Shown here: piece after piece, positions 1-25,490 of the stretch | Position numbering within the stretch: the first letter of the stretch is position 1 | How the letters are laid out: each line of letters begins with the position of its first letter | Origin: a virus | IMG/VR virus record: IMGVR_UViG_3300042898_003059 | Span: 1-31,169 of that record | Length of the DNA stretch: 31,169 nt | Direction: 5' to 3' (one strand) | Position numbers and translations under genes: made by a program | Notes under the pieces: generated by a model | Databases searched by the model: none | What the model was told of the DNA's origin: nothing | What the model saw: the letters and a program-made list of their open reading frames with translations, nothing else

Positions 1-1833
1 CGTGTCGGCACCATCGGTTCATCTTCCACTATTGGACAAACGGCACAGGCAGTCGGTTCATATTTCTTGCCTGGCGATACGTCAATCCTGAGAAGCCCTA
101 TTCGTTCAACCGGATTTTCTTTACTAACCCCAGGAACGCCCAATATCCCCAGACTTCCCAGTATGCGCACTGGCCGCGACAAAGTCCATAGATGTCCTGA
201 AGGTTTCCAATATGGAGGTCGCTTTACAGACAACCAGTTCACTACATGTGGAGCAAAATTGTTTGATATTCCAAGCCCTCTTGGATTAGCCATGTCTGCT
301 TTGCGTGCGTTACGCAGGGGAACAACCCTGAAACCCATTCCTGTAGAAGGAAGAGCATTAACCCCGGGAGAGTACGGAGGATCAGTGATTGATTCTCGTG
401 CACCACAAATCCCACGAGTTACAGATAGTGATGTCAAAAAACAACTTGAAAGTATTAGGCAAATTGTCAAAGACATGAATCAACCGAACCTTGATGCCAA
501 GAGAATGGTACGGCGTGACGGGTTCATTCTGGAACCAGTGGTATCTCCAAAAGTTTTGAGAACCATTCCCGATAACCGTGACATGGAAGGGGCAGCATAC
601 ATTTTAAATGCAAATAATGTTTCTACCCTCGGTGGCGAAGAACTTGGGTTGCTCTCAAATACTGGAGTAACCAAACTTATGTACGTTTTACCTGGTGGAT
701 CAACACTTAGTTTAGAAAAAGTTAGACCATTAACCGTTGGTGAACGTCGCAAACTTGGTAGAACAGTCAATGCTGCCTCTCGTATTGATAATAGTCAGAT
801 CGCTGCGGCAAGACTGATGTCTGTTGCTGAAGAAACTGGTGACGGGATTCAATATTCTGAAAATTTTGTTGGTGTCAGCAACCCCCATAAGAGAATTGCT
901 ACAAGAAATGGCAAAATGGTTGAAAGTTGGGTTGGCCAAGTATTTGCCAACCGCAAAGGCAAGCCATTGCCCGAGACGAGACAGACTTCTTCTGAGGCTG
1001 GCATTTCTGAAAAAATATCTTCACTTCAAGAAGCGATTGAGCATATTGCGGCAGGTGGAAGTCTTGCTTCTATTTCCCCCGATATTCTCCAACAGGCGCT
1101 TATTCAGGCTGGATTATTCAAAGCACGCAATATTGGCAATAATCAGAAAATTTTCGACGGACCCAATGGAAGATCGTATTTGTCTATTAGTCCTATTAAT
1201 GATTTTGAACATTTGAACGCAACTCTCGTTTCTGATATTCAACAGCATTTTGGTATTGAATCTCCAGACGTTTATCCATATGGCTCGGGTCCTCGTCGTT
1301 CATATTTGAAAGAAACTTCTGGGACTGTTTATCCAGGAAATGTGCCATCTACCAGCAAACTATTTAAAGATGGCGACATTTCTCATGTGGCTGCGCTTTT
1401 AGTGTCCGACTTATTGATCGGTGATTCCAATAGGTCGCCCGCAAGCGTCGAAATTATAGAATTGTCAGACAAAAATGCGGTTGTCCCGACCATCAACTTG
1501 CCCGATTTTACTGAGATTCAAAAGAAAATCAAGACTCCCGAAGAACTCATCAGACAAATGGCATCACTTGCTGAAAATGGCTCCTATCAGGAGTATTATA
1601 GAGAGTTGAAGAGTCAACAAAAAAGACAATTCCTTGCCATTATCAATAAGTTGCTAGCAAGAGCGCGGGCTTTCAATTTTGAAAAATATCAAGCCAGATT
1701 TGTTATTGATGGAAGATTGACCGAAGTAGAAAAAAGTCATTTACTAATAATGCAGAAGATAGTCAAGCAGAGAATTGGCTCTCTGGAAAGAGCCGGAGAT
1801 TTGATCCGGAATATACTTGGAGGATTTCAGTGA
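1..1833 (+). CDS. Virion-associated protein of unknown function, 5' end outside the window
   Basis: The reading frame is open from base 1, so the gene enters from the left; the TTG at 67 is only the first possible start inside the window. A Cys motif (RCPEGF...GGRFT...STCG-like; Cys codons at 193 and 247) resembles the Cys/WMPC motifs of the giant protein at 9308, suggesting a shared virion role. The middle part (about 1080-1480) has an order reminiscent of HipA/PI3K-like kinase folds: a segment with HLNATLVSDI then GIESPDVYP, and later LLIGDSNRSPAS where a kinase would have a D-R-H-x-N-type loop. The catalytic residues are not preserved, so I call it at most a degenerate kinase fold. The C-terminus is helical and basic. 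The stop overlaps the next start by 4 nt (GTGA), so the two are translationally coupled. Function not recognised. Confidence 0.75.
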   Translation, partial: RVGTIGSSSTIGQTAQAVGSYFLPGDTSILRSPIRSTGFSLLTPGTPNIPRLPSMRTGRDKVHRCPEGFQYGGRFTDNQFTTCGAKLFDIPSPLGLAMSALRALRRGTTLKPIPVEGRALTPGEYGGSVIDSRAPQIPRVTDSDVKKQLESIRQIVKDMNQPNLDAKRMVRRDGFILEPVVSPKVLRTIPDNRDMEGAAYILNANNVSTLGGEELGLLSNTGVTKLMYVLPGGSTLSLEKVRPLTVGERRKLGRTVNAASRIDNSQIAAARLMSVAEETGDGIQYSENFVGVSNPHKRIATRNGKMVESWVGQVFANRKGKPLPETRQTSSEAGISEKISSLQEAIEHIAAGGSLASISPDILQQALIQAGLFKARNIGNNQKIFDGPNGRSYLSISPINDFEHLNATLVSDIQQHFGIESPDVYPYGSGPRRSYLKETSGTVYPGNVPSTSKLFKDGDISHVAALLVSDLLIGDSNRSPASVEIIELSDKNAVVPTINLPDFTEIQKKIKTPEELIRQMASLAENGSYQEYYRELKSQQKRQFLAIINKLLARARAFNFEKYQARFVIDGRLTEVEKSHLLIMQKIVKQRIGSLERAGDLIRNILGGFQ

Positions 1834-4800
1834 ATCGTTACGCCCTATTAAAAGATTCTATTAATGACAGTATTTTTGGAGTAATCGTTGATAGTAACGG
1901 TCTCTCAAAATTCTATGGCGTAAGCGCCAAAGGACTAGAATGGTCCAAGTGGGCCAACGGGATTAACGTTAAAAGCGAAAACAACGGTTTACCAATTGGC
2001 GTAGTGGTAGGCGGTTACTCGGCCCTTCGTAACACTAACCCCAACTATATTCAAGCACTCGTAGATACTGTATCTCTCCGCAATCCTTCAATCAATAAGA
2101 AACAAGGCATCTCTGATTCTTTGATCAAGAACTCTTCCTCGGTTGTCCCTGGTGTTCGTGACGCGGAATTGCGTGCATTTGACATCGACAAGCGTAATGA
2201 AGCCATTGCTTTCAAAGCGCGTGCATTCCGTACCGACTCCAAAGTTTCATCGTTGCTTACCCAGGTGCGTGCGGAGCGACTGGGATTTGTTTCAGCCGAA
2301 GGCGTATTTAGTTCACGTAACCCAATCCATACCCCTGAAGTGAAGCAAGCAGAAATTATTGATTTGTATGGTCGTTCTTTGCAGCGTGCTATTGGCTTGA
2401 GTCTTATTCGTAAGAAGTCAGCCAAGATGCTTGCTGTTGTCCGCAAGAATCAGGCGCTTGCTCAGTCTTTTGGTATTGAATTCAAGGCGGCTGGTATTGG
2501 TCCGAAGATTGGTAGTCGTTTGGGTGGCGGTCTTCGTTCTGCTCCTGCTGGCATGTCTTTTGTTGACGTTACTGGTGTGACTGACGCTGATACTGACGGT
2601 ATTGTTTTTGAAGGTAAGCCTGGTCTTGAGCGTCCGATTATTCCTCGTTTTATGGTTCCGAAGGACCTTGCTCGTAAGTTGTCTGGGATTGTTGATGGTG
2701 ATGCTGAAGAGATTGAGAAGCAGCGTCGTGCCGGTAATACGAGCGTTCAGTTTGATGAAGGTAAGTTGCGTAATATTGTTGCGAGTGTTGGTGGGGATGC
2801 GAGTCTTCTTCAGGCCGTAACTAATGATCGTGGTGTTCCTGCTACTACGACTTCTGGGCGTGAGCGTGTTTCTGCTGCTGCTCGTAATGTTGCTGGCAAT
2901 ATTGCTTCTCGTCGTAGGGAGATTGCTTCGCGTCGTGGTATGCGTAGTGGTCAGCGTGCCGATCTTGGTGATGCGACTCCGCTTTCTCCTGGTGAGTTGA
3001 ATAAGTTGTCGGAGCAGGAGATCGTTGATCGTTTGATTGAGGATCGTTATGCTGGTTTGAATCTTGATGAGGCTGCGAAGAAGTATGGTTTGAAGGGTGG
3101 TCGTGTTGAGGCTCGTCGTCTTGAGGCTCGCGAAATGCAGCGCCGTAATAACCAAGGTATGCGCTCGCGGACAACACCTCCAGGAATAGTTCGCGAAGAT
3201 TATTTTAACTTTGAAGAATATGATTTCAATGATCAGGTTGTTGACGCGATGGGGAACTGGATGGGTCGACCGGATCAGCAAGAAATGCGCGAAAGAAGCG
3301 GTGGACTTGAGGCACTCTGGGAAGACTTCAAGAAGTCTGACGAATACCGCGACATGGAAGCCGACATGCTGGATGACAACCTCAAGTTCAGTGGAGCAAC
3401 TTCGGATAATCCGGTACTAGTCTCAACCGCAGGCAATGACCGTGGTCAGGCAGAAATCAAATATGACGGAGAAATGTTCACTGTTGACGTAAGTTTATGG
3501 AATAACGAACAAGACGAACTTTTTGATACTCCAGAAGCCAAGCAAGAATTCGATAATCTGTCTGAAGCAGAAGAATATGCATCGTCGCTATTTTCTGATG
3601 GCATGCGTTCACGTAACTTAAAAATGTCAGGTGCTCCAAAAGAAATTCAAGATTCTTACTCCGAAGATGACATTAAAAAAATTGAAAATTCATTACGTAC
3701 TGGAGGTCGTCAGGAACTTCGCCTGTCGTGGGACTCAGAAAATAACGGATGGATGCTTGATTCTTTTGATGCCGACGGAGAAGTCTTTATTGAAGCAGAC
3801 GCACCACTGGTTCGTTTAACTGATGCGATATCTGATGTTATTGCGGATCGATATGACTCAGAGGCATATGGTGGCGAACCGCCATACCTTAGCAATATGA
3901 ATGAATTACTGCCCGATGAAGAAGATGGGGACGATAGTTGGATTAAAGAATATCCAGTTTCTGGTATGCGTTCAGTTACTGGTATTTCAGAAATGAACAC
4001 TTCTGGCGCTCCAAAAGAATATGCAGATGCTCTAGAAAAATGGCGTGGCTATTTTGGCGAAACACCTACTCGTAGGAATAGAAGAACAGGAAAAGTAACT
4101 GAAAGTGAGCGGAATCACCCAGCACTACCTTCAGTCTATTGGAATAAAGAAAATGAATCGTGGGTGCTTTCGTTCGATGGCGAACCGACCGAATTAAGTA
4201 TTTATTCTGACGATCCAAGAGAAGCAGCAAAGGCAGTTTCGGATATTCTTGAAACAACAGCAGATCGTTATCGTTGGGAAAATGAAGACAACTTTGGGGA
4301 TATTAGCGATTTGGCAGATATCGGTGAGATGCACAGTGATGGCGACGGTAAAGATAGAACCGTAAAAATTACCGCTGGTATGCGTTCCAGTTCAGGAAAC
4401 ATTAATAGTTTTGACGACTATCTGAACCATCCCGCATTTGATAGAGATTTTGCTGAATGGCGCAAAGACAATCCAGGTAAAAATAAGAGAGATTTTATTG
4501 ACGACCCAGACGGCGCAGAAGAATACTTCTCGCTTGGTATGGAAGAAGCAGGAGCATCCTTAAACCCAGAATCATATTTTGGCACTTCTGGCATGCGTTC
4601 ACGTTCAGGTGGAATGCGTTCACGAGTTGGTGGTGGCAAATGGGATGGCAAGCGACCAGAACCACAAGACATTAAAGCAGGTGCAGACTTAAGCGGAGCG
4701 GACCTTAGTTATCAAATTTTGCGTCGTATTGACTTGAGTGATGCTAATCTAACTGGAGCAAATCTTGTTGGTACAAAAATTAATGGTGCTAATTTGAAAG

Positions 4801-7800
4801 GTGCAAATCTAACAGATGCCAACCTTAGTAGAACAGAATTGCAAGCCTCAAATCTTGTTGGCGCAAAACTTACTGGCACTGATTTTACTAGTGCAAACCT
4901 ATCAAATGTCGACCTAACAAATGCCGACCTATCTTCCGCAAACCTGTATAGCACAATGCTTGATGGGGCAAATCTAACTAACGCAAACCTTCAGGGCGCA
5001 AACCTTCGCGGTGCAAAAATGCAAGCAACAAACTTGAACGCTGCAAACTTAATTAAAGCAAACTTAACTGACGCAAATCTTACTGACGCAAAACTAATTG
5101 CCGCAGACTTAATTTACGCAGACCTACGAAATGCAAAAATGATTCGTGCAGACTTGCGATTTGCGAACTTGGCAGGCGCAAACTTAACTAGAGCAAACCT
5201 TGGTACTGCAAACCTAAAAAAAGCAAATCTAGAAGAAGCAAACTTAACTGACGCAAACGTCACTGACGCAAATCTTACTGACGCAAAACTGGATAATGCA
5301 GTTTTAACGAACGTAAGAATGCCCAGAGACTGGATCATCAGCAATTTGGGCACTGCTGGTATGCGTTCACGTGGCTATCGTAATGACGATGATTCGGATT
5401 ACGATAATGAGGATTACGGAGTTGACAGGGGAGACTGGGACGATGATCTAGACCCCGATGAACGTCGACGCATCATGGACGGTATGCGTCGACGTTCAGG
5501 TGGAATGCGTTCCAGGTACTCTGATGACAGTGCAGATGGCTACTCGGAAGCAGATGCGCCCGATCTTGATAGAGAAGATTACGAGAACTACATAGATACT
5601 CCTACGTTTGAAGAACATTTAGGTGAATGGCTCGTAGATAATCCGGGCAAGACTAGAGAAGATTTCATCAATGACCCCGACGGTGCAGAACTCGCATGGG
5701 ACAAATTTTTTGAAAACGATGATCCAAAAAAGTATTACGGCATTAGTGATGCTGAGTGGGCTGCCGCTTTCCGTTCACGTTCAGGGAACATAAATAGTTT
5801 TGACGACTATCTGAACCATCCCGCATTTGATAGAGATTTTGCTGAATGGCGCAAAGACAATCCAGGTAAAAATAAGAGAGATTTTATTGACGACCCAGAC
5901 GGCGCAGAAGAATACTTCTCGCTTGGTATGGAAGAAGCAGGAGCATCCTTAAACCCAGAATCATATTTTGGCACTTCTGGCATGCGTTCACGTTCAGGTG
6001 GAATGCGTTCCAGTACGCAACTACGTGGCAGGGACTTCAAGCGTGATGCCAATATCAGAGCCAATCACCTTGGCAAAGATGCTGAAACATGGCCAAGAAC
6101 AGCAAGATTGCAAGACGTAATCTATCCCGAGAGACCTTATTATGGTGCTCAAGACGTGAGTCGGTCAGATAAAATTATTCTGAGTGCTCCAAGTGAAAAT
6201 GGTGGCCCTGAAGGAAAAGTATATATCGCAGAGTTTGACGACGAAACTGGAACACTCACAGTCAGTTGGGGCAGGGCAGACAGTAGAAATCTTCAGACAA
6301 AAGTTTATTCAGGTAAAACTGAAGAAGATTTCCACAAGTTATTACGAGACAAAGAAAAGCGTGGATATCGACTAGAAGGTGGTCATATTCCTGCCAAATC
6401 TTCATCATATGACAAAGATGTTGATTGGAAGGCAGATCATGAAAAACAAGCCAAGATGGGTATGCGTTCCAGTACAGGGACAGAACAGCGCCCCTATACG
6501 AATGTCCCAGTAACAGGTTCATCAGCATTGCGACAAGCAAGTTATAACGCAGAAAAACAAGAACTAGTTGTAACTTACGCGAATGGAAAAACATACACAT
6601 ACAAAAACTTTTCAAATGATGACTTAGATAATTCTCTATCTGGGCCCGACTATGTCCTGACGGGCACTGCAGTAAATCAGATAAAGAAAAATCACGATTT
6701 CCGCGAAGGTGGAACACACACATTTGATCCTCAATATCAAGATGTTCAAGGTCCAGGTGGAGAATTCAGTGTAGAAAAACTTTCCCGCCTTGGACGTGGA
6801 GAAAAAACTCAAATTCCAGTAACCGGTTCTTCGGCAATCGAAGCACTCACATGGGACGATGAAAACGAAGACCTTATCGTAACCTACGCAGGTGGACGCA
6901 CATACACATACAAAGATGTTGACTCTTACTGGATCGAAGATTTAGAAAGAGAAACTGGCACTGGCCGAATTATCAACAACATCAAAAAAGAAGGTTATCG
7001 CGTAGTCGATGGCGGTGAACATGGTGATATGCCAAGTGAAGGCCTAACGGCAGAACGCGCAGAATTCGGTATGCGTTCACGCATGGCTCCCTCGTCAGGC
7101 CGTATCCGTGCAGCAGAAATGGAAATCTCCGCTCGCCCACAAGGAATGGCATCACGTCGCTCCGAAGGCCTCAAAGACCCACGTTTCGCCGTACCAGGAC
7201 GCGACCGCGTTGACCCATCAGATGGACAACTATGGAACCGCCTATCAGACGAAGAAAAAACAACCGTTGCAAACCGTGCCGTTAATCGCGAAAGAATGCT
7301 TCTCAACGAGTTCAAGCAACGATTCCCAAGATGGTGGGATAGAGCAAGTAAGGAAGCAGACAAAAAAGGTTGGGACAAAGATTTGATGAAGGGAGGCAAC
7401 GCCGGATGGCTTGACGAATTGCACAGATTCGTTACTAATCTTGCTGATGATCCAAACTACCCAGAGAAGAGTAGAGCCGACGCGGAGAAGCAGTTTAATG
7501 ACCTGCAGGCCCTTTATAACATGAGAATCAACAGAGGCTCACATGACCTTCTAGAACACTTGAATCCTACTTCGCGACGCTACCTATTTGACGATGCTCG
7601 ACGCGATGACAGTAAGAAAACTGGGATTTCTGCTAGCAGTAAAGAAATGAAAACACCTTCTACTGCACCACGCCCATTCGGTGATCCGATTGATGTCGGA
7701 ACACCAATTCGTGAACAAGTTGGACAGAATCAAAAGAAGCCAATGAAAGAACGTCTAGACGCATACTACAAGAGAATGTCAGACAAGATTCTTTATTCTG

Positions 7801-8906
7801 ATCCCGCACGTCAGGCTCGCCGCGAAATGCGTAAAGCACGACGTCAAGGCATTAACGCTGGAGGATTCACCGAAAGAGAAGCCAACCCAGTAGATGACGC
7901 AAAACGTAAGATTCGTCGCCGCAAGCGCCTCAAGCAAATGCGCAAAAATCGCACACGCGACGTCAGCACCATCTCTGACTCATCAACAAGTAACCGTATA
8001 GATGGACGCCTTGCTCACACCGATGGCCAAGGTTCATTAGTATTCGGAGATAAGTTGGCTTCAACTCTTTCAACGATGATGCAAAATTATCGTACAGAAG
8101 CAAAACTGAAGCAGACCAAGGGCGGCGTTAATAAGAATAGAGCCCTTGCTGTTCTTTGGGATGGTGCCGGATATAACGGAACACCAAACATTGTCACACC
8201 AGATGAATTCAAAGCACTTCATGCAGCCGGCTGGGTCCCTGTAGTAAGAGGACATGGCAACGGTTCAAATGGAGTTCGTTATGCGAACGACTGGATTGAC
8301 GATCCCGTACGTTTCATCACAGGACAAGGTGGAGAAGCGCAAGGCGAAGGTGAATACTGGGCAAGGGCTACGCAAGGCGGTGGTGGCTGGTTCAGTTGGA
8401 TGGATGGTTCATTGCCTGCAGGCACTGTAGGTCTCCTCCCTCCATCAACACGTCGTGTTAATAAGGCAGAGTTGCGTAAAATTCAAGCAGAGCATGCTCC
8501 TTTGGCGAAAGCAATTAAGGCTTTTGACGCAGGACTGCCGACTGGAGAACGCGAAAAAATGAATGCTGAAGAGTATGTGGATCAATTGCGTGATCATTTA
8601 CGTGGCTCGCTTGGACCAATTTATGAATCAACAATGTCCACCAAGATGGGTCAGATGACATCAAAGATTTTGGAATCACTAAGTGGTTCTTCGGATTCCA
8701 AGAAACAAGAACTTCTTGATTCTTTAGAATTCCTTGAACTTATTAGTAAGAAGAGAACTTCTAACTCATATGCTCCGCTATTAGGCTACGATACAATTAT
8801 GGCTGATAGCGGCGTAGAATTGATTCATAACCGCACGGCAATCACTATCGTTGGTGATACATTCAAGAGAGATGACGCAGTCAATTTGGCTAAGTCGAAA
8901 GCATAA
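1830..8906 (+). CDS. Giant modular virion polyprotein with pentapeptide, WGR, KTSC and C-terminal ADP-ribosyltransferase-like domains
   Basis: 2358 aa. The GTG start overlaps the upstream stop and has GGAGG at 1819-1823. Order of parts: unique N-terminus (1-250); a DADTDG acidic loop followed by ERPIIP (about 252-270); two related modules starting SGAPKE (about 597-706 and 716-845); a ~65-aa FDDYLNHP module (about 853-920), repeated perfectly at about 1316-1384 and in diverged form at about 1250-1315; a pentapeptide-repeat beta-helix rich in A(N/D)L (about 950-1167); a WGR domain (about 1463-1515, W1480-G-R, ending EKRGYR); two KTSC-like domains (about 1560-1625 and 1663-1726, GSSA...VTYA.G.TYTYK); a basic helical stretch; and an ART-like domain (about 2100-2350) with R2140, a GEGEYWA turn at 2175, GYDTI at 2319 and a terminal NRTA strand. 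GMRS(R/S) tags separate most parts. This architecture suggests cargo packaged in the capsid; that role is inferred. Confidence 0.85.
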   Translation: MNRYALLKDSINDSIFGVIVDSNGLSKFYGVSAKGLEWSKWANGINVKSENNGLPIGVVVGGYSALRNTNPNYIQALVDTVSLRNPSINKKQGISDSLIKNSSSVVPGVRDAELRAFDIDKRNEAIAFKARAFRTDSKVSSLLTQVRAERLGFVSAEGVFSSRNPIHTPEVKQAEIIDLYGRSLQRAIGLSLIRKKSAKMLAVVRKNQALAQSFGIEFKAAGIGPKIGSRLGGGLRSAPAGMSFVDVTGVTDADTDGIVFEGKPGLERPIIPRFMVPKDLARKLSGIVDGDAEEIEKQRRAGNTSVQFDEGKLRNIVASVGGDASLLQAVTNDRGVPATTTSGRERVSAAARNVAGNIASRRREIASRRGMRSGQRADLGDATPLSPGELNKLSEQEIVDRLIEDRYAGLNLDEAAKKYGLKGGRVEARRLEAREMQRRNNQGMRSRTTPPGIVREDYFNFEEYDFNDQVVDAMGNWMGRPDQQEMRERSGGLEALWEDFKKSDEYRDMEADMLDDNLKFSGATSDNPVLVSTAGNDRGQAEIKYDGEMFTVDVSLWNNEQDELFDTPEAKQEFDNLSEAEEYASSLFSDGMRSRNLKMSGAPKEIQDSYSEDDIKKIENSLRTGGRQELRLSWDSENNGWMLDSFDADGEVFIEADAPLVRLTDAISDVIADRYDSEAYGGEPPYLSNMNELLPDEEDGDDSWIKEYPVSGMRSVTGISEMNTSGAPKEYADALEKWRGYFGETPTRRNRRTGKVTESERNHPALPSVYWNKENESWVLSFDGEPTELSIYSDDPREAAKAVSDILETTADRYRWENEDNFGDISDLADIGEMHSDGDGKDRTVKITAGMRSSSGNINSFDDYLNHPAFDRDFAEWRKDNPGKNKRDFIDDPDGAEEYFSLGMEEAGASLNPESYFGTSGMRSRSGGMRSRVGGGKWDGKRPEPQDIKAGADLSGADLSYQILRRIDLSDANLTGANLVGTKINGANLKGANLTDANLSRTELQASNLVGAKLTGTDFTSANLSNVDLTNADLSSANLYSTMLDGANLTNANLQGANLRGAKMQATNLNAANLIKANLTDANLTDAKLIAADLIYADLRNAKMIRADLRFANLAGANLTRANLGTANLKKANLEEANLTDANVTDANLTDAKLDNAVLTNVRMPRDWIISNLGTAGMRSRGYRNDDDSDYDNEDYGVDRGDWDDDLDPDERRRIMDGMRRRSGGMRSRYSDDSADGYSEADAPDLDREDYENYIDTPTFEEHLGEWLVDNPGKTREDFINDPDGAELAWDKFFENDDPKKYYGISDAEWAAAFRSRSGNINSFDDYLNHPAFDRDFAEWRKDNPGKNKRDFIDDPDGAEEYFSLGMEEAGASLNPESYFGTSGMRSRSGGMRSSTQLRGRDFKRDANIRANHLGKDAETWPRTARLQDVIYPERPYYGAQDVSRSDKIILSAPSENGGPEGKVYIAEFDDETGTLTVSWGRADSRNLQTKVYSGKTEEDFHKLLRDKEKRGYRLEGGHIPAKSSSYDKDVDWKADHEKQAKMGMRSSTGTEQRPYTNVPVTGSSALRQASYNAEKQELVVTYANGKTYTYKNFSNDDLDNSLSGPDYVLTGTAVNQIKKNHDFREGGTHTFDPQYQDVQGPGGEFSVEKLSRLGRGEKTQIPVTGSSAIEALTWDDENEDLIVTYAGGRTYTYKDVDSYWIEDLERETGTGRIINNIKKEGYRVVDGGEHGDMPSEGLTAERAEFGMRSRMAPSSGRIRAAEMEISARPQGMASRRSEGLKDPRFAVPGRDRVDPSDGQLWNRLSDEEKTTVANRAVNRERMLLNEFKQRFPRWWDRASKEADKKGWDKDLMKGGNAGWLDELHRFVTNLADDPNYPEKSRADAEKQFNDLQALYNMRINRGSHDLLEHLNPTSRRYLFDDARRDDSKKTGISASSKEMKTPSTAPRPFGDPIDVGTPIREQVGQNQKKPMKERLDAYYKRMSDKILYSDPARQARREMRKARRQGINAGGFTEREANPVDDAKRKIRRRKRLKQMRKNRTRDVSTISDSSTSNRIDGRLAHTDGQGSLVFGDKLASTLSTMMQNYRTEAKLKQTKGGVNKNRALAVLWDGAGYNGTPNIVTPDEFKALHAAGWVPVVRGHGNGSNGVRYANDWIDDPVRFITGQGGEAQGEGEYWARATQGGGGWFSWMDGSLPAGTVGLLPPSTRRVNKAELRKIQAEHAPLAKAIKAFDAGLPTGEREKMNAEEYVDQLRDHLRGSLGPIYESTMSTKMGQMTSKILESLSGSSDSKKQELLDSLEFLELISKKRTSNSYAPLLGYDTIMADSGVELIHNRTAITIVGDTFKRDDAVNLAKSKA
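4404..4621 (+). repeat. 218-bp direct repeat, copy A
   Basis: Read base by base this stretch appears identical to 5793-6010, an offset of 1389 bp. It encodes one FDDYLNHP module plus two flanking GMRS tags. Synonymous positions are also identical, so the duplication is recent or maintained by recombination. Confidence 0.9.
5793..6010 (+). repeat. 218-bp direct repeat, copy B
   Basis: Second copy of the repeat at 4404-4621, same orientation and same reading frame. The pentapeptide-repeat domain and a diverged third copy of the same module (about 5577-5775) lie between the copies, so recombination between A and B would remove these in frame. Confidence 0.9.
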
Positions 8907-8919
8907 GGTGAAGGGCATC

Positions 8920-9276
8920 ATGGAAACTGGAACAAATGAACGCATGTTCATGCAGCAACACTCTCATTTATCGGAATTGATGGATTATCCGCCATTTACG
9001 ACAAGTATTGAAAAATCTCAAGCATTTGAAGATGCATTGTCCGCAGCATATGACGTTATCTCTAAAAAACTTGACAAATTAGATGACGATATGGGTGTTG
9101 ATCGTGATGAAACTTTCAAGGACTCATATAAGACAGTTGTTTCTAAATATATCGACAATATTGAAGAAGCAGAATTATATCGTGTTCGCTATGGTCAAGA
9201 CATTAAAGCAGCGCAAGCAGCAGCACTTGAGGCTGAAGGCAAGACATTGGACGATGATGGGGTACCATATCTCTAA
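8920..9276 (+). CDS. Small acidic helical protein between the giant genes
   Basis: 118 aa. I chose the ATG at 8920, which follows GGTGAAGGG and begins 13 nt after the upstream stop; a longer in-frame version would overlap the giant gene. The protein is acidic and mostly predicted helical (for example KKLDKLDDDMGVDRDE), has no cysteine and no transmembrane segment. No family recognised. Its position between two giant virion-type genes suggests an assembly partner, chaperone or scaffold-like role, which is inference only. Confidence 0.75.
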   Translation: METGTNERMFMQQHSHLSELMDYPPFTTSIEKSQAFEDALSAAYDVISKKLDKLDDDMGVDRDETFKDSYKTVVSKYIDNIEEAELYRVRYGQDIKAAQAAALEAEGKTLDDDGVPYL

Positions 9277-9307
9277 TAGTTAATTAGAATGTGAAGGATT
9301 ACTCTAC

Positions 9308-12300
9308 ATGAAATCTACATCGTCCAGCACATATAAGAAGATGCGGGCGTTGCGGGAAGCCCAAAAATTAGGTTGTTCTGGCGCTCATCAAAATAACGAT
9401 GGCCGCTGGATGCCTTGTTCTTCGCATGACAAATTAACTCAAGTCGCCCCAGTGATTGCTTCTGCCAGCAGGGATGCCATATCTCAAAATCGTGGAAAAA
9501 GAACCCTAAAGGGCTCTAACAAGATTAAGAAACAATGGGAGAACCTCGGTCAAAGTGGCATCCTCAATTTAGGAAACGTCGCTGGCGGCGGGTTAGTGGC
9601 TGGTAGTCCTACAGGGAATTTTGGTGGAGATGCTGCTGGCATGAGTGCCAAAGCATTACCCAATATTTTTGGTCCACGCGATCAAGACGTTGATGTTTTC
9701 ACTGACATTGAATCTGCTAGACAGCGTTCGCGTCAATTAGGTTGCGTTGGTGTTAGTCGACGCATCTCCAAAACTGGTGCGACAGTCTGGATGCCCTGCA
9801 CAAACATGTCCGATTATTCGTCGCTTGCTGGAACCACCAGCCTGGGCAGACGTCATCAAAAAGAACGTTTAGAGCGAGTCATTAATGCCGCTATTGAAAA
9901 GAAACTAAAAAAGAACAATAAACGTAATAAGAAATCTCTTGCTGGTGATGTTAATTTCAAAGCACTTGGCGGTGGCTTGGGTGGAAATCTGAAACGTCCT
10001 GCATTCTTTGATCCCAACGCATGGGACGGAGACAACGACGGTCGCGTACAAGACAACACGCCATTTGAACGCCCATCTATTCCTGGAGTCAACGGGCTGC
10101 CCGTGAGTGGGATGAGAAGTGTCAGTAAACCGAGACTGAACATAGATGAAGCGCAACGGGAAAGCATAGAAAGTGGCGACACCGCATTTGATGAACTGGT
10201 GTTTTCTAAAAAAGCAAAAAAGTATGCTCGCAAATATTTAAAATTATTTGAATCAACTTTTGAACCAATTGATGAAAAATATCGCTATATGGACGATGAC
10301 GAAATTATCGATCTAATCAGAAGTAGCATGCCCGCGTCTGCTGAAGAACTGAAACAATTAGTCCGCACAAATCCATTCACAAAAAACAAAGCACGAACTG
10401 CGTGGAGCCGACTCATGCAGGCAAATCCAGACTTTGAAGCAACAGCCAAAATGCGTGATGCTTTCATTAAGCAAATCAAAGATAACCCTGGTGTTTTGGA
10501 AATGGTTCGTCGTTATGGCGTTCCACCAATTGTTGCCACAGAGTATGTTCCAGCATTGGCCTGGTATGGCAATAACACTGAAGGGTGGGGTGAAAGCGGT
10601 GGCGGCTGGGCTCATCTTGGTGTCATAGCAATGAACTATACGTGGGTTGAATTCGATCACGGGATGTCAATCGAAGATGCTGTACGCCACGAAATGGGTC
10701 ACGCGTGGGAAGCAATGGCTGCAGTTCAAAATGATAAAGCAAGAGCACATTACGCTTTACAATTTTCTGAACTTTATGAAGGACTTATTCAAATGTCCAG
10801 GAATAAGGAACAAGTATCTTCCTATCACGACGCCAAATGGGGCAATGAATCAGAGCATGCCTCAGCAGCAAAAATATCTGAGTATGCAACAACAGCAAGA
10901 ATTGAATGGTTGGCAGAAACAATTGCTGCCCTAACTAGTTCCGACCCAAGTAAAAGAGCAAAAGTTGATGCTACTGCTAAAGAGAATATTAGCGAATCAT
11001 TCGGCATTGCACCTTGGGAAGTTGAACAAATATTCACTCCTATAGATGGTTCTGGAGGTTTTGCTAGCAGAATTTCTTCTTTGCCAAACAAACGTGATTT
11101 AGATAACCCAAGTTTGAGTGATTTTCTTAAAAAAAGATACGAAATAGATGAAGATTCATTGTCAGAATCCGCAAAATGGGTTGAACAAAATCCTGAGTAT
11201 TTATCGGATATGTCTCTATCCGTCCAGTTATCTTCCTCCCCAGGGGTTCAGAGTCAATACAGGCGATCAGTCGTTGAAGGATTCAGGTCATATAACTCAC
11301 AGGGACGCCAAGGTTCTGGTGGTAGAGAAATGGGCCAAAAAATACTCGGGCGTGTCAACCCAGAAGAATCCAATCAAGACGAACCAACATTATATTTCGT
11401 TGGTGGCACTACCGGTTCCGGAAAATCGACATTAGTAGCCAGAGGGGTAATGGACGGTGTGCCAAATCAAAGTTCTGCCGCGCATATTGATCCCGACGAA
11501 ATAAAAACAGGGTTAGTTGGCTGGAATGGCGGGCAGGGGGCCAGTGCAGTGCATCAAGCCTCACGGGTTGCCACCGACAAAATCATGGATGATGCCGCAT
11601 TACAGCGAATGCATATGGTTGTCCAGGGTACGGGCAAGCGTCGCGAACATCTAACCAATATGCGCAGACGAGGATATAAGACTTCAGGTCATTTTGTGTG
11701 GATTCCTGACGATCTCGCAGATCAAAGAGTTGCGGAAAGGAAACGTAACGGCGGAGCGAATATACCGACATATTTTGGTTCGCAAATTGCGAGAGAACTT
11801 AGAAGTGGGCCTGATTCTGTTTCTCGTCAGATAACTGACGGTCTTTATGATGAATTTTTTCTTTACGACAACAGTGGAGATGTCCCAAAACTTGTAGCCA
11901 AACGTTTAACGGATGGTTCATTTGAAATATTGAATAATCAGGTGTTTAATTCTTTCTTTAGTCCAACTGGGGCAAAGTTTGTTCGTGATTACTGGGAGAG
12001 TAACTCTCCATCAAATAAAAAGAATTTAACCCGTACCGGAATGTCTAGCAGAAGAGGTCTTTCTTCGATGGGTGACAAAGTTGGGATGCGATCACGTCGT
12101 CTCGGCGAATGGGAAGATGTAACTGATTACGACAAATTTGGTGAATCAAGTATCGTTTTAAAAAATACTTATGGTGAAGATAGCCTGCGTGATCTTTTAG
12201 AAATTTTGGAAAGCGAACAATCATCTATTAAGAAAGCAATTGCGCATTGGGAAAAAACTGGTGAATGGCTTGGTGAAGATTTCAATGTTTCTATGCCAAG

Positions 12301-15300
12301 AACACCAAATGCGAAATCTGGAATAACAAAAAATCATACTGCCGAAAGTCTATTAAAAAATCAGACAAAAGAACAGATGAAAAATAACTTTGATTTGTAT
12401 TTAAATAACATTGATGCTCAACTAAAGCATGTTCGTGGGCGACTAAAGAATATTGAAGAAATAAATAATGGCGCTGAACCATTGCACATCAATTTTGCCA
12501 CTTTGCGTGACATGCCGGATTTTGATGCTTTAGTAAAACGTGGGAAAGAAATTAATAACTTGAGATATGGAGACGAAAATCCACTTATTTCAGATGATTA
12601 TATTTATTTAACACATACTGGTCATCCAGAACTTGAAAATGGCATTCTTGACCCCAACTTTAGCCTTGACGCTGGTGGTGGAGGCATCCCTGGTCGTGGA
12701 TCAATGGATACAAAACGTTTAAATAAAGTCGGCAGGGACATGATTGTCCGAAAGTACGAAACGGCAGAGAAAGACCTGACCGCATGGCAGGAAGTTGTTG
12801 ATCATTTTAGTAAAACTGGTGAATGGCGTGGAGCAAAATTGGCTAAATCACTTCAATTGGGAGCACAAAAACCCACTGGAAGAATTTTTAATGACTACAG
12901 TGCCGATGATTTAGACAATAAAATTTCTTCAGAGTACCTTCTTGATCAAGCATCCAACAGTATTGACTTCAACAAAGAAGTTCTTCAAAGATTAAGCAAG
13001 CAGTACGGTCCTGCTAAACGTAATGAAGAACATTTAAGTTACGAATTTGCTGGCAGTGGACCAAATTTTGGTTATAGCCGACGAGACACCCCCAGCAGTA
13101 AGACTTATCTTGTAAGAGTTCCTCGCGATGAGGCAACTACAGAGGCTGGACCGTCCACAATGGGGGAATTCCAAGTTTTCGGTCAACTCAAACCTGTTGC
13201 TTCATTTGAATTCCCAAGCAATATCAATGATTGGGACACCAACGCTGCCGCTACTGCTTATTTTGAAAAAATAGCGTTAAAAAATGAAGGAATTGCCACT
13301 TCTGGTATGCGTTCACGAAATCAACTTGGACAATCTATAGAAAAAGATGAGATTTTCGGAGGTTCAGTATTCTCTGGATTCACTCCACGAAATCCGCTTA
13401 CAACAAGGGACCTAAACAACAATAATTTGCGTATGGCAGAAATGATTTCGATACATGTCGACCCTCGTATTGATTTCAAAAACAGAAACATGGATTATGC
13501 AAACCTTACAAGAGCACATTTGGGTGGAATTGACTTAACAGAGTCATCGTTGTTTAGTTCCAACTTAAGTAATCTCAATGGTTCTGGAGTCATATTTGGC
13601 AAAACAAATTCCAAACCTGCTGATTTACGTTACTCAATATTGAGTGCAGCACAAATGCCAAATTCCCAATTTGAGGGAGTTGATTTATCTGGCGCACTAA
13701 TGATTTCAACAAATTTCAACAAAGCGAATTTAAAGAATACCAATTTTGAAAATGCCGTCTTATGGAATTCAGATTTTCGTGGTGCGGATTTGCGTGGATC
13801 GAATATCACGGTAGAGCAGTTAATGAATTCAAAATTTGATTCAACAACTAAATTGCCTGAGGGTATGTCGTTGCCAATTGCGGAGAATAATGGGACCAAT
13901 ACGCAAAAACCATCAACTCACAAGATTCCTCTTGGTGTTATTGGCAATGATGATGCCGATTTGCTTCGTAAAAATCTTGTTGATGGTGTTTTGAAAATTG
14001 ATGGGCCTCTAGATGCTAAGAAACTTGAATTATTACGTAGAAATTTGAGTAAATCAGAAATTTTCAATACTGATTTACGACGGTCAACCTTTAATGAAAG
14101 CACTTTTTTTAATTCAACAATGGCAAATGTGGATTTAACTGGAAGTTCTTTGTTTAAATCAAACTTCAATAAGAGTACATTGAACAATATAAAATTTAGT
14201 CATGCAAATTTGGTTGGTGCTAATTTTAGAAATGCAATAATTGGTCGAAATGTATCATTCAAGGGCGCAAATCTTACTGACGCAAATTTTGCTGATGCTA
14301 AAATACAAGGCAAGATAGACTTGTCTGGTGCCGATCTTACCGGAGCGATATTAGATGGTGTGGATTTGCGTGATGCCATAGTTGATAGTCAGACAAAACT
14401 TGATGGCGCTATTGGTCTTGACAGGAATAAAACACCCAAAATGGTTGTCCGTGGTTTGAGATCACGTAATTATTCTGATATGTCGACAGAAGATTTAATA
14501 AACACTCCAGGCAATGTTCTTTTGTCTGATGCCAACGATGCATTGCTGGAAATTGGCAAGATGAGTAACGCCAAGCGTCCAGATGCAAACATTGATCCCC
14601 TTGTATCTAAAATACAAATTATTTATGGACATCTTAATGATGTTCCTGGAATCAATGAAGATTTCTCTATCAAGAATTCTGAGTTAGATAATCAAATATC
14701 TGCAGTAAATAACATTATTGATCAGTTTGGAACATTCCAATTCGGTGATGGACAACCCATAGATGTTAGAAAATTCATTGAAAATAAAGATAAATCAGGA
14801 TATGTCAAGGCAATTAAGTCTTCTGGACAGAATGTTCCACTCAGTATTCCAATTAATGAGTGGAATAAAATAAATTCTCAATTAGTTGCACGCGATATGT
14901 TGAATGATCGCAAAGAATTGTTATCTCCAACAACAAAGATAGTTAAAAGTAAACTGAATAGTTCTGTTGCTACAGAAGCGATGCTTTCTGACTATGGGAT
15001 TATGAGCAATATTAATAATCTTCCAGATTTTTCAATTGCTGAACCGATTCGCAAAAAGCGACCAACGCCCTCGATAGCCAGTGGTGAACTTGGGCCAAAT
15101 GAAATGTTGATTTATAACTCCAATAACCGTCCAACAATTTCTAAAATACCTAAATCACAAAGAATTGAACAATCGATCAATCGTGTAAATGGTATGGCTA
15201 GTAGATCGAAGCCAACTTCTGAAACAGGGAGAGCAAATAGGTCAGAAGAAATCTATAAAACTGTTTCTGATGCACTCATTGCAGCCCTAGAGGAATCTGT

Positions 15301-16153
15301 TGATGGGAATTGGGAACGTCCTTGGAATTTGGGGACGACAATTCCAAGAAACGCTTCCACTGGCAGACAATATGGCGGGTTTAATGTCATCCTTTTTTCT
15401 CTTGTCCAACAGAATCGTAAATACGAGCATCCTGTATGGGCCACATACAAGCAATGGGAAGCACTTGGCGCCCAAGTTCAAAGAGGCGAAAGGGGTTTGA
15501 CCGGAATTAAGTGGGTTTCTCGCGAACGCGACGTCAAACTCCCAGATGGCACCCCGACCAAGGATACGTTCTTGACCCCTAGTGCCTTCACGGTTTTTAA
15601 TATTGCCCAAGTTACTGGGGCGAATCCAGATGATTTCCTCCCTCCAAGGCTTTCTCCAGAAGAAAGAATTCCTGCTCTAGAAGAAATCTTTGGACAAATT
15701 CTTCCCAATATTAAAACAATCAATGGAGATTCTGCATACTATAGTCCGGCTAGTGACTACATCAATATGCCCCCGTTCTCAGCCTTTAATGACCCAAGCG
15801 CATACTATGCAACACTTTCTCACGAATTGATTCACTGGACAGGAAATAAAAAAAGAGCCGACCGCCCAAATATGAACCGATTTGGGACACCAGAATATGC
15901 TTTTGAAGAATTAGTAGCAGAAATAGGTTCTGCTTATCTAATGGCACTCCTTGGGATGGAAGCAACACCTCAAAAACAACACGCCCAATATTTGAAATCA
16001 TGGATCGAGATATTAAAAGATGACCCTACTGCAATTCAACGTGCCGCAAGCCAAGCACAAAAAGCAGTAGATTATCTTATTGCTCAATCACCAAAACTAC
16101 AAGAATTATCGACACCTATTAACATTTCACAAAATTTAGTGGAAGAAGCCTGA
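9308..16153 (+). CDS. Giant modular virion polyprotein with zincin, zeta-toxin, pentapeptide and ArdC antirestriction domains
   Basis: 2281 aa, ATG preceded by AAGGA at 9294-9298. Two Cys/WMPC motifs open the protein (C23/C37 and C146/C164), then a DPNAWDGDNDG loop with ERPSIPG (about 235-258). A zincin follows with H461-E-M-G-H465 and likely third ligand E533 or E537 (EWLAE). A zeta-toxin-type kinase has Walker A GGTTGSGKST (699-708, K706), a downstream HIDPDE, and VVQGTG. A region near 1130-1320 (YLTHTGHPELENGIL ... TYLVRVPRDEA) is weakly ART-like. Two pentapeptide-repeat domains lie at about 1360-1510 and 1570-1700. The C-terminus (about 1970-2270) is ArdC-like: an N-terminal DUF1738-type domain (YGGFNVILF, WATYKQW) and metallopeptidase H2172-E-L-I-H2176 with FEELVAEIG (2199-2207). 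GMRS-type tags lie at the borders. Known ArdC protects incoming plasmid DNA from restriction; an injected phage version is inferred. Confidence 0.88.
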   Translation: MKSTSSSTYKKMRALREAQKLGCSGAHQNNDGRWMPCSSHDKLTQVAPVIASASRDAISQNRGKRTLKGSNKIKKQWENLGQSGILNLGNVAGGGLVAGSPTGNFGGDAAGMSAKALPNIFGPRDQDVDVFTDIESARQRSRQLGCVGVSRRISKTGATVWMPCTNMSDYSSLAGTTSLGRRHQKERLERVINAAIEKKLKKNNKRNKKSLAGDVNFKALGGGLGGNLKRPAFFDPNAWDGDNDGRVQDNTPFERPSIPGVNGLPVSGMRSVSKPRLNIDEAQRESIESGDTAFDELVFSKKAKKYARKYLKLFESTFEPIDEKYRYMDDDEIIDLIRSSMPASAEELKQLVRTNPFTKNKARTAWSRLMQANPDFEATAKMRDAFIKQIKDNPGVLEMVRRYGVPPIVATEYVPALAWYGNNTEGWGESGGGWAHLGVIAMNYTWVEFDHGMSIEDAVRHEMGHAWEAMAAVQNDKARAHYALQFSELYEGLIQMSRNKEQVSSYHDAKWGNESEHASAAKISEYATTARIEWLAETIAALTSSDPSKRAKVDATAKENISESFGIAPWEVEQIFTPIDGSGGFASRISSLPNKRDLDNPSLSDFLKKRYEIDEDSLSESAKWVEQNPEYLSDMSLSVQLSSSPGVQSQYRRSVVEGFRSYNSQGRQGSGGREMGQKILGRVNPEESNQDEPTLYFVGGTTGSGKSTLVARGVMDGVPNQSSAAHIDPDEIKTGLVGWNGGQGASAVHQASRVATDKIMDDAALQRMHMVVQGTGKRREHLTNMRRRGYKTSGHFVWIPDDLADQRVAERKRNGGANIPTYFGSQIARELRSGPDSVSRQITDGLYDEFFLYDNSGDVPKLVAKRLTDGSFEILNNQVFNSFFSPTGAKFVRDYWESNSPSNKKNLTRTGMSSRRGLSSMGDKVGMRSRRLGEWEDVTDYDKFGESSIVLKNTYGEDSLRDLLEILESEQSSIKKAIAHWEKTGEWLGEDFNVSMPRTPNAKSGITKNHTAESLLKNQTKEQMKNNFDLYLNNIDAQLKHVRGRLKNIEEINNGAEPLHINFATLRDMPDFDALVKRGKEINNLRYGDENPLISDDYIYLTHTGHPELENGILDPNFSLDAGGGGIPGRGSMDTKRLNKVGRDMIVRKYETAEKDLTAWQEVVDHFSKTGEWRGAKLAKSLQLGAQKPTGRIFNDYSADDLDNKISSEYLLDQASNSIDFNKEVLQRLSKQYGPAKRNEEHLSYEFAGSGPNFGYSRRDTPSSKTYLVRVPRDEATTEAGPSTMGEFQVFGQLKPVASFEFPSNINDWDTNAAATAYFEKIALKNEGIATSGMRSRNQLGQSIEKDEIFGGSVFSGFTPRNPLTTRDLNNNNLRMAEMISIHVDPRIDFKNRNMDYANLTRAHLGGIDLTESSLFSSNLSNLNGSGVIFGKTNSKPADLRYSILSAAQMPNSQFEGVDLSGALMISTNFNKANLKNTNFENAVLWNSDFRGADLRGSNITVEQLMNSKFDSTTKLPEGMSLPIAENNGTNTQKPSTHKIPLGVIGNDDADLLRKNLVDGVLKIDGPLDAKKLELLRRNLSKSEIFNTDLRRSTFNESTFFNSTMANVDLTGSSLFKSNFNKSTLNNIKFSHANLVGANFRNAIIGRNVSFKGANLTDANFADAKIQGKIDLSGADLTGAILDGVDLRDAIVDSQTKLDGAIGLDRNKTPKMVVRGLRSRNYSDMSTEDLINTPGNVLLSDANDALLEIGKMSNAKRPDANIDPLVSKIQIIYGHLNDVPGINEDFSIKNSELDNQISAVNNIIDQFGTFQFGDGQPIDVRKFIENKDKSGYVKAIKSSGQNVPLSIPINEWNKINSQLVARDMLNDRKELLSPTTKIVKSKLNSSVATEAMLSDYGIMSNINNLPDFSIAEPIRKKRPTPSIASGELGPNEMLIYNSNNRPTISKIPKSQRIEQSINRVNGMASRSKPTSETGRANRSEEIYKTVSDALIAALEESVDGNWERPWNLGTTIPRNASTGRQYGGFNVILFSLVQQNRKYEHPVWATYKQWEALGAQVQRGERGLTGIKWVSRERDVKLPDGTPTKDTFLTPSAFTVFNIAQVTGANPDDFLPPRLSPEERIPALEEIFGQILPNIKTINGDSAYYSPASDYINMPPFSAFNDPSAYYATLSHELIHWTGNKKRADRPNMNRFGTPEYAFEELVAEIGSAYLMALLGMEATPQKQHAQYLKSWIEILKDDPTAIQRAASQAQKAVDYLIAQSPKLQELSTPINISQNLVEEA

Positions 16154-25420: not shown

Positions 25421-25490
25421 TTTTATTACTCCTTTATTGATATTGCCATGGGGACAATACCATAATGGATGGTGATGTCTTTTGAAATAA

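What the first reader, a model, noticed from the sequence alone, without database searches (positions are those of the whole stretch)
1830..16153. Two giant polyproteins bundling anti-host and antirestriction effector domains
Two genes of 2358 and 2281 aa, just upstream of the major capsid gene, string together WGR, two KTSC-like, pentapeptide, ART-like, zincin, zeta-toxin and ArdC domains with linkers. Known analogues are T4 Alt (an ART packaged in the head and injected) and N4 virion RNA polymerase (a giant packaged protein). A phage polyprotein combining several nucleotide-modifying and antirestriction modules would be a new kind of injected toolkit. Packaging itself is inferred from neighbourhood, length and ART/Muf-like context.
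Basis: partly seen in the sequence, partly recalled or inferred. Interest (0 to 1): 0.9.

Follow-up and report, generated by a model that had tools for sequence, protein, structure and literature searches.

The report
Phage cargo polyproteins punctuated by tags
Two giant phage genes next to the capsid gene are strings of swappable anti-host modules, separated by a short peptide mark that each phage lineage spells in its own way, which suggests a cut-to-release weapon kit carried by the virus.

Summary
Both giant ORFs are real (2358 and 2281 aa), and most listed domains hold: pentapeptide, two KTSC, zincin, zeta toxin, ArdC+MPTase. WGR is sub-threshold; ART-like is plausible but unproven. As a class they are polyvalent proteins (Iyer 2017). 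What is new is how they are built. A short tag (GMRSR and variants; 15 sites in A, 6 in B) separates the modules. In the closest relative the same tag punctuates four giant ORFs between portal and capsid genes (54 sites), one headed by the S78 prohead protease. Many related phages show the same layout with their own tag (STRS, LSSG, ISGRM, GMAS and others). Tag use is nearly exclusive: portal and capsid genes lack tags, homologous modules sit between different tags in different phages, and tags avoid domains. Tags are better conserved than their flanks, and in several phages their codons are near random, so selection acts on the peptide. A 477-bp module between perfect 38-bp tag repeats is present in two close relatives and absent here, an exact cassette gain or loss. 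Most likely these are packaged effector polyproteins whose tags are module joints and processing sites. Cleavage and packaging are inferred; the tag's reader is unknown.

The parts
1..1833 (+). ORF1, 3' part of a conserved core protein (645-730 aa stop to stop in 23 of the 25 fetched relatives); function unknown
   Evidence: homologues in 26 of 26 phage sets including the window by profile; 0 tags here; no useful PDB sequence match
1830..8906 (+). protein A, giant cargo polyprotein (2358 aa), start overlaps ORF1 stop
   Evidence: domains; 15 tag sites
1830..2936 (+). N-terminal tag-free head of A, conserved in relatives
   Evidence: 12 non-redundant homologues listed (one near-identical); first tag at residue 408 of the stop-to-stop frame
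2937..2951 (+). tag 1 of A (GMRSG)
3156..3170 (+). tag 2 of A (GMRSR)
3600..3614 (+). tag 3 of A (GMRSR)
3963..3977 (+). tag 4 of A (GMRSV)
4377..4391 (+). tag 5 of A (GMRSS)
4374..4621 (+). small module, first copy, with tags at both ends
   Evidence: 97% identical DNA copy at 5763-6010
4590..4625 (+). tags 6 and 7 of A (GMRSRSGGMRSR)
4665..5351 (+). pentapeptide-repeat domain of A
   Evidence: PF00805 E 3e-53; PHROG matches
5358..5372 (+). tag 8 of A (GMRSR)
5481..5516 (+). tags 9 and 10 of A (GMRRRSGGMRSR)
5763..6010 (+). small module, second copy
5979..6016 (+). tags 11 and 12 of A and the cassette joint: in relative G001 a 477-bp module sits here between perfect 38-bp direct repeats
   Evidence: identical insert (477 of 477) in G002
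6243..6371 (+). WGR-like domain (sub-threshold)
   Evidence: PF05406 E 0.14
6459..6473 (+). tag 13 of A (GMRSS)
6513..6656 (+). first KTSC-like domain
   Evidence: KTSC 2 stretches; phrog_7365 span
6828..6971 (+). second KTSC domain
   Evidence: PF13619 best stretch 1667-1714
7068..7082 (+). tag 14 of A (GMRSR)
7143..7157 (+). tag 15 of A (GMASR)
7947..8906 (+). C-terminal module of A, ART-like candidate
   Evidence: 16-row alignment with invariant RG, GxGEY, GxD, R; AF2 pLDDT 80.9; weak ART rows
9308..16153 (+). protein B, giant cargo polyprotein (2281 aa)
   Evidence: domains; 6 tag sites
9344..9427 (+). DUF3721 motif (best stretch; a second stretch also passes)
   Evidence: PF12518 E 1.4e-14
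10109..10123 (+). tag 1 of B (GMRSV)
10361..11077 (+). zincin-like domain with HEMGH and downstream EW.AE (ends approximate)
   Evidence: kept in 5 of 5 aligned
11369..11827 (+). zeta-toxin-like kinase domain
   Evidence: PF06414 E 7.6e-12
12038..12052 (+). tag 2 of B (GMSSR)
12083..12097 (+). tag 3 of B (GMRSR)
   Evidence: pLDDT under 50 in the model
12083..13327 (+). ART-like candidate module of B, tag to tag
13304..13318 (+). tag 4 of B (GMRSR)
   Evidence: pLDDT under 50
13643..14410 (+). pentapeptide-repeat region of B (two blocks)
   Evidence: PF00805 E 8e-29; PHROG spans
14453..14467 (+). tag 5 of B (GLRSR)
15191..15205 (+). tag 6 of B (GMASR)
15248..16054 (+). ArdC-N plus MPTase-PolyVal module
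   Evidence: PF08401 E 4e-25, PF18818 E 8e-43
16491..17798 (+). major capsid protein, HK97 fold
   Evidence: PF05065 E 4e-47; profile to 3qpr E 2e-64

Best explanation
A and B are two members of a set of cargo (polyvalent) polyproteins of an uncultured tailed-phage lineage with an HK97-fold capsid and an S78 prohead protease. Giant ORFs have an N-terminal head, conserved in several of them (A, B, the S78 ORF, and the ORF with a ~710-aa head), followed by a string of interchangeable modules (anti-restriction, pentapeptide, zeta kinase, ART-like, and in relatives helicase, exonuclease, NUDIX, DnaJ, sigma-like), separated by one lineage-specific peptide tag. Shown: tag architecture, mostly one tag per tag-bearing phage, module boundaries, peptide-level conservation, and a tag-to-tag cassette gain or loss. 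Inferred: the polyproteins are made late with the head, go into the prohead, are cut at the tags (S78, found in 28 of 36 records, is the first candidate), and the released modules enter the host with the DNA to blunt restriction and other defences. The tag would thus serve both as cut site and as recombination joint.
For: Layout: portal, then S78 protease (alone or heading a giant ORF), ORF1 and capsid gene in that order in 25 of 25 fetched relatives, with giant ORFs between. Tags by profile at about one false hit per set: G001 55 sites, 54 of them in four giant ORFs and 0 in portal, ORF1, capsid and the two ORFs of 250 aa or more downstream; G005 39, G006 39, G008 31, G015 28, G016 22, G021 27, G036 27. 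The phage-by-tag table is close to diagonal, e.g. in ORFs of 900 aa or more G001 has GM[RAS]S 41 / STRS 0 / LSSG-type 0 / ISGRM-type 0 and G005 has 0 / 35 / 0 / 0. The same RNase_T module (40-56% identical) sits between GMRS, [LM]SSG, FSSG or ISGRM tags in five phages (RNase_T by Pfam in four, and by profile in G016). Tags inside domain spans: 1 of 189 against 21.4 +- 4.5 with rotated tags, 0 of 2000 rotations as low. Tag core identity 167/180 against flanks 848/1154 between G001 and G003. Codon identity among tags is at chance in G006 and G021. A 477-bp cassette between 38-bp perfect repeats is present in G001 and, identical, in G002 and absent in the window, with the rest of A 99.6% identical.
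Against: The S78 domain is highly conserved across tag classes and the capsid N-arm motif NGANM is present in 64 of 67 capsid sequences whatever the tag, the three without it being the named outgroup phages; so S78 is not obviously the phage-specific reader of the tag. The capsid cleavage site could not be placed. In 10 of 26 phage sets no tag-like exact 5-mer rises above shuffles, so tags are not universal. Tag codons are more alike than expected in G001, G008 and G036, and slightly so in G005, G015 and G016, so DNA-level copying also contributes. Enrichment of tags at the ends of homology blocks is modest. No proteomic data were found for any member; cleavage and packaging were not tested.
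Confidence: 0.5

Rival explanations
1. The tags are only linkers and recombination joints. The polyproteins are packaged and act uncut as beads on a string, as N4 virion RNA polymerase is packaged unprocessed. Tag similarity within a genome reflects repeated cassette shuffling.
For: Direct evidence of cassette gain or loss at 38-bp tag repeats; excess codon identity in G001, G008 and G036; some relatives lack a clear tag, and G009 repeats poly-glycine instead. N4 per PMC5512222 (passage).
Against: Codons at chance in G006 and G021 and 26 of 26 distinct 15-mers in G005; tag cores far better conserved than flanks; the tag here holds Met and Arg rather than generic linker residues; homologous modules carry different tags in different phages.
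Confidence: 0.3
2. The tags are cut after delivery, by a host protease or by an embedded zincin (MPTase-PolyVal or the B zincin), to free modules in the host cytoplasm. The tag would follow host protease specificity, which would explain why it differs between phages while S78 hardly does.
For: S78 conservation against tag variation; zincins are embedded in B; autoprocessing by MPTase was proposed for polyvalent proteins (PMC5512222, passages).
Against: Zincins are patchy: ArdC-MPTase in 8 of 25 fetched relatives and the B-type zincin in 3 of 25 (plus one doubtful 26-residue hit), while tag-bearing G016 and G021 have neither by these profiles. Hosts are unknown.
Confidence: 0.2
3. The tag is a docking motif that recruits each cargo polyprotein to the inside of the prohead (scaffold or protease), a repeated capsid-targeting sequence rather than a cut site.
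For: In the eight best-tagged phages the tag is absent from portal and capsid ORFs; docking would explain multiplicity and lineage specificity.
Against: Placement at module boundaries is not needed for docking; no variable receptor was identified.
Confidence: 0.12

Closest known systems
Polyvalent proteins of phages and conjugative elements (Iyer et al. 2017, PMC5512222)
   Same: Many disparate effector domains in one polypeptide, including ArdC-N, MPTase zincin and zeta-like kinase, encoded beside virion genes, proposed to be injected.
   Different: The words linker, pentapeptide and KTSC do not occur in its main text. In the passages read it describes no recurring boundary peptide, and processing is ascribed to embedded zincins. 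Here four tag-bearing giant ORFs of one genome share a lineage-specific tag and one carries the S78 prohead protease (G001).
Prohead-protease processing of head and ejection proteins in giant phages (SPN3US gp245, PMC5694885 and PMC10052503)
   Same: Head proteins cut at a short shared motif by the prohead protease (passages).
   Different: 14 sites in nine separate proteins, 13 of the 14 removing N-terminal propeptides; the word polyprotein occurs in neither text. Here tens of candidate sites lie between effector modules; cutting is not shown.
T4 Alt and N4 virion RNA polymerase
   Same: Alt: a packaged ART. N4 vRNAP: a packaged RNA polymerase with an MPTase domain (both per passages of PMC5512222).
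   Different: No RNA polymerase domain found in A or B by Pfam or PHROGs; ART assignment inconclusive.
Crassvirus cargo proteins (PMC10172136, search listing only)
   Same: Cargo proteins named in a virion paper (term counts in the listing only).
   Different: Not read; no comparison of domains or tags was made.

Membership tests
Polyvalent proteins | two or more functionally disparate domains in one polypeptide, including PolyVal-type domains | tested here: met
   B: DUF3721, zeta, pentapeptide, ArdcN, MPTase-PolyVal; A: pentapeptide, KTSC
Polyvalent proteins | encoded by a phage among late/virion genes | tested here: met
   directly upstream of the capsid gene; portal and S78 protease upstream in G001
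Polyvalent proteins | packaged and transferred into the host | not testable with these tools
   needs virion proteomics
Substrates of an S78 prohead protease | the phage encodes the protease | tested here: met
   met for G001, whose A is 99.6% identical and which has S78; the window record itself starts downstream of that gene
Substrates of an S78 prohead protease | cut at the repeated motif | not testable with these tools
   motif present and conserved; no cleavage data
Substrates of an S78 prohead protease | motif variation matched by variation in the protease or in the capsid cleavage site | tested here: inconclusive
   S78 domain highly conserved across tag classes; capsid NGANM in 64 of 67; capsid cleavage site not placed
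ADP-ribosyltransferases (ART-like module) | ART fold | tested here: inconclusive
   no Foldseek PDB match at E<=0.001; low VIA rows to 1dtp Z 5.1 and TreX Z 4.9
N4 virion RNA polymerase | RNA polymerase domain | tested here: not met
   no such Pfam or PHROG match in A or B at the thresholds used
WGR domain proteins | Pfam WGR over its cut-off | tested here: not met
   12.8 bits against cut-off 22

The most novel reading that the evidence does not exclude
These phages use a peptide punctuation code: each lineage marks up to ~11,000 residues of cargo polyprotein (G001: 54 sites in four ORFs, one headed by the prohead protease) with its own tag. The tag is cut during head maturation or on entry, so that a virion delivers dozens of separate effectors.
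Probability: 0.38. Interest if true: 0.92.

Novelty: new variant of a known kind. Interest (0 to 1): 0.78.

Why it matters
If the tags are cut sites, a DNA phage has evolved something like the polyprotein strategy of RNA viruses for delivering many early effectors from a few genes, and the tag gives module boundaries without structure prediction. That makes a large store of unknown anti-defence domains minable: cut the ORFs at the tags and test each module. It would also make it testable how phages package and eject large protein cargo. Even if the tags are only joints, an in-frame cassette system with a lineage-specific, peptide-level tag is unexpected. A core protein (ORF1) and the head of a second giant ORF had no tblastn match among 50,697 phage records, so the lineage appears poorly represented among sequenced isolates, although the capsid protein has relatives there at under 60% identity.

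Tried and rejected
DNA-motif explanation: the DNA form GGNATGCGNTCN is found 35 times in frame in G001 ORFs of 2000 aa or more and 0 times elsewhere or on the minus strand (14/0/0 in the window); distinct codons reject a pure DNA signal, though codon identity is elevated in G001, G008 and G036.

Simple co-variation model (the same protease reads tag and capsid site): not supported, because the capsid N-arm NGANM and the S78 domain hardly change between tag classes. A possible shared core (capsid M-x-[SA] against tag [ML]-x-S) is inference only. I tried to place the capsid cleavage site by profile against HK97 gp5 chains; the N-arm alignment is ambiguous. On a capsid tree of 17 of the 25 phages (8 capsid sequences missed by my filter) tag classes cluster weakly: 8 changes against 10.0 shuffled, as low in 8 of 200.

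Structure: two AF2 jobs. Foldseek PDB gave nothing at E<=0.001; in BFVD the eight matches at E<=0.001 to the A module carry no functional name, and a PolyVal ART lies at E 0.068. PDB sequence profiles of both modules, ORF1 and the ~220-aa ORF, and a search with the 141-aa ORF, gave nothing usable.

Host: a capsid search in genome contigs gave 7 MAG loci of mixed taxa; host not assigned. Nearest named phages by capsid protein: Brevibacterium phage Cantare (49%) and Gordonia phages; no repeated tag was found in the stretches fetched from Cantare, GMA6 and DalanDe.

Literature: searches listed no report that I recognised of tag-punctuated phage polyproteins; four papers were read as passages only, and only open-licence papers are held.

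Selection and misses: 25 of the 28 S78-bearing records (of 36 searched) were taken for the interval analysis, so S78 in 25 of 25 is by selection. By the contig ranges the 8 misses hold at most about 23 kb upstream of the capsid gene. Tag profiles used the 13 relatives fetched first and the window; G027, then only partly fetched, gave no tag-like profile and was dropped from the homology counts, while the weak sets G012, G018 and G023 were kept. The window and G001 are near-duplicates, and so count nearly as one. A few profile hits fall outside giant ORFs (for instance two in ORF1 of G008, one in the capsid of G012) and look like the expected false hits. Homology-end enrichment is modest: 160 of 692 ends within 25 aa of a tag against 111.5 +- 12.4 rotated. 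The 40 domain spans were entered by hand; one (KTSC of G005) is just under its cut-off, for the window's pentapeptide and first KTSC I used wider PHROG spans, and the one tag inside a domain lies in such a span. In one search, 51 of G001's 55 sites matched my core pattern and 45 aligned without gaps.

Full report
1. The observation. The window (31,169 bases, an IMG/VR virus record) holds two giant uninterrupted ORFs, A (1830-8906, 2358 aa, GTG start overlapping the stop of ORF1) and B (9308-16153, 2281 aa), followed by an HK97-fold capsid gene (16491-17798). Pfam supports pentapeptide repeats in both, KTSC (2 stretches) in A, and DUF3721 (2 stretches), zeta toxin, ArdC-N and MPTase-PolyVal in B. 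A second zincin in B is supported by RHE[ML]xHAW and EW[LF]AE kept in 5 of 5 aligned sequences. WGR is below its cut-off (E 0.14). Two modules are ART candidates (A 2040-2358, B 926-1340). AlphaFold2 gave mean pLDDT 80.9 and 76.3, but Foldseek found nothing in the PDB at E<=0.001. VIA second looks list ADP-ribosylating enzymes at low Z behind helical rows (diphtheria toxin 1dtp Z 5.1, 121 aligned, rmsd 3.9; PARP1 Z 3.5; TreX/TreTu Z 4.7-4.9, 101-106 aligned). I treat ART as plausible, not shown.

2. The tag. Repeat searches showed families of GGYATGCGTTCACGT-like repeats scattered through both genes. In protein they read GM[RSA]S[RSV], 13 times in A, 5 in B and in no other window ORF of 150 aa or more; a profile finds 15 and 6. 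The tags lie between, not inside, the recognised domains.

3. Relatives. A capsid search of viral contigs confirmed 387 places and kept 80 loci. Peptidase_S78 was found in 28 of 36 records searched. I fetched the interval for 25 of the 28. In all 25, portal, S78 ORF, ORF1 and capsid gene come in this order, with S78 13.7 to 48.1 kb upstream of the capsid gene. Also in all 25 there are a 425-633-aa core ORF and a ~220-aa ORF, the latter fused to the S78 ORF in two. Giant ORFs lie in between, some headed by S78; 19 of 25 have giant ORFs between ORF1 and the capsid gene, where A and B lie, and the other six, all of the LSSG tag class, have them only upstream of ORF1. G001, whose capsid protein differs from the window's by one residue of 435, has giant ORFs of 3661 (S78 at 27-171), 2727, 2557 and 2289 aa, and one of 934 aa; the 2557 and 2289 are A and B.

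4. Mostly one tag per tag-bearing phage. The dominant 5-mer differs between phages but recurs through the giant ORFs of one phage: GMRSR 26 copies in G001, STRSS 12 in G005, GLSSG 18 in G008, RFSSG 12 in G036, ISGRM 12 and 11 in G016 and G021, GMASR 10 (RGMAS 12) in G007, GLRSS 7 in G020, against at most 3 in shuffled sequence. By this exact-5-mer criterion 16 of 26 sets including the window have a tag. Two further sets exceed shuffles only through tandem or poly-glycine repeats (G031, G009), and the other eight do not clearly exceed them (two reach 3 against 2); of these, G012 and G018 carry 10 and 11 G[ML]RS matches. With a profile and a threshold of about one false hit per set, G001 has 55 sites (54 in four giant ORFs, one doubtful in the 934-aa ORF), G005 39, G006 39, G008 31, G015 28, G021 27, G036 27, G016 22; in these eight there is none in portal or capsid ORFs and none to two in ORF1. 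Counted by five patterns, the table of phage against tag is close to diagonal; ORFs of 200-700 aa have 0 or 1.

5. Tags mark module boundaries. Homologous modules sit between different tags in different phages. An RNase_T exonuclease module lies between GMRSQ and GMRSR in G001, RMSSG and GLSSG in G015, FSSG tags in G036, and ISGRM tags in G016 and G021, at 40-56% identity. The ArdC module follows GMASR in B, RLSSG in G015 and G036, PLSSG in G008 and GMRSA in G006. Across 40 domain spans, 1 of 189 tags falls inside a domain against 21.4 +- 4.5 for rotated tags (0 of 2000 as low). Inside cross-tag homology blocks there are 54 tags against 196 +- 17 (minimum 139 of 500 rotations), and 160 of 692 block ends lie within 25 aa of a tag against 111.5 +- 12.4 (maximum 155); the median distance from a block end to a tag is not shorter than with rotated tags (108 against 105). 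In the model of the B 926-1340 module both flanking tags have pLDDT under 50.

6. Peptide-level conservation and cassette exchange. Between G001 and G003 the tag core is 92.8% identical (167/180; 45 of 51 tags aligned without gap) against 73.5% (848/1154) for its flanks. Codon identity among tags equals the chance level from codon usage in G006 and G021, is slightly raised in G005, G015 and G016, and is clearly raised in G001, G008 and G036. So selection acts on the peptide, with some recent DNA copying. A direct exchange event is visible: A of the window and of G001 are 99.6% identical (2388/2398) and differ by one 159-residue module lying exactly between tags. In G001 the 477-bp cassette is bounded by perfect 38-bp direct repeats encoding GMRSRSGGMRSST; the window has one copy (with one base different) at 5979-6016. 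G002 carries the identical insert (477 of 477). A 248-bp module with tags at its ends is also duplicated within A (97% identity).

7. Cargo range. In relatives the modules include UvrD-like helicase, RNase_T, sigma-70 region 4, NUDIX, DnaJ, KTSC, pentapeptide, zeta and ArdC-MPTase. Long stretches of the giant ORFs have no Pfam match (same calls). The range (restriction, DNA processing, nucleotides, transcription) fits early host takeover and defence evasion (inference).

8. Mechanism. Most likely the polyproteins are late products that enter the prohead, are cut at the tags, and the pieces go in with the DNA. Shown: architecture, tags, boundaries, conservation, cassette change. Inferred: packaging (from the neighbourhood of portal, protease and capsid genes), cutting (from the tag's properties), injection (from domain content and the known polyvalent class). 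S78 is in 28 of 36 records; ArdC-MPTase occurs in 8 and the B-type zincin in 3 of the 25 fetched relatives, which were chosen for having S78. But S78 is highly conserved across tag classes and the capsid N-arm motif does not follow the tag, so a more variable phage or host factor may read the phage-specific part, or the tag's identity may be kept partly by cassette shuffling.

9. Known and new. The class is polyvalent proteins (PMC5512222; passages). Processing of separate head proteins at a shared motif is known in SPN3US (14 sites in nine proteins, PMC10052503, passages; PMC5694885, passages). NUDIX fused to a capsid-processing serine peptidase was noted in PMC9503650 (passages). I found no report of lineage-specific tags separating effector modules in the searches. 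A core protein (ORF1) and the head of a second giant ORF have no tblastn match among 50,697 phage records, although the capsid protein does. I therefore rate it a new variant of a known kind, with a clear path to being more.

Noticed in passing
window 18087-21113: 1008-aa ORF with a 57-nt tandem repeat (3.8 copies, KSYDQGYDEYDEYEDYLYQ) and other internal repeats; no PHROG match at E<=0.01. Function unknown.
   Followed up: no
window 21464-21673: 51-nt tandem repeats coding for Pro/Arg-rich sequence in ORF 20944-22050, which overlaps the preceding ORF.
   Followed up: no
window 23773-24746 (-): Two adjacent HNH endonuclease-like genes sharing a 125-nt stretch at 72% identity, downstream of the capsid region.
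   Followed up: no
window 24779-27753 (-): Gene block on the opposite strand: ferredoxin-like PHROG, SAM methyltransferase and a 587-aa glycosyltransferase.
   Followed up: no
window 8851-9276: Possible 141-aa ORF between A and B; an ORF of similar size lies at the same place in G001; only weak PHROG matches and no PDB match.
   Followed up: partly
L088 14943-19844 (Gordonia phage DalanDe gp27): Cultured relative whose annotated capsid maturation protease carries about 1100 extra N-terminal residues before the S78 region: a testable isolate with a fused protease.
   Followed up: partly
L094 11660-12328 and homologues: A ~220-aa ORF upstream of ORF1 is conserved (25 of 25 fetched relatives, fused to the S78 ORF in two) with a stretch rich in invariant His/Cys/Trp (WLHHETTGLWPNEGCHHP); no PDB sequence match.
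   Followed up: partly
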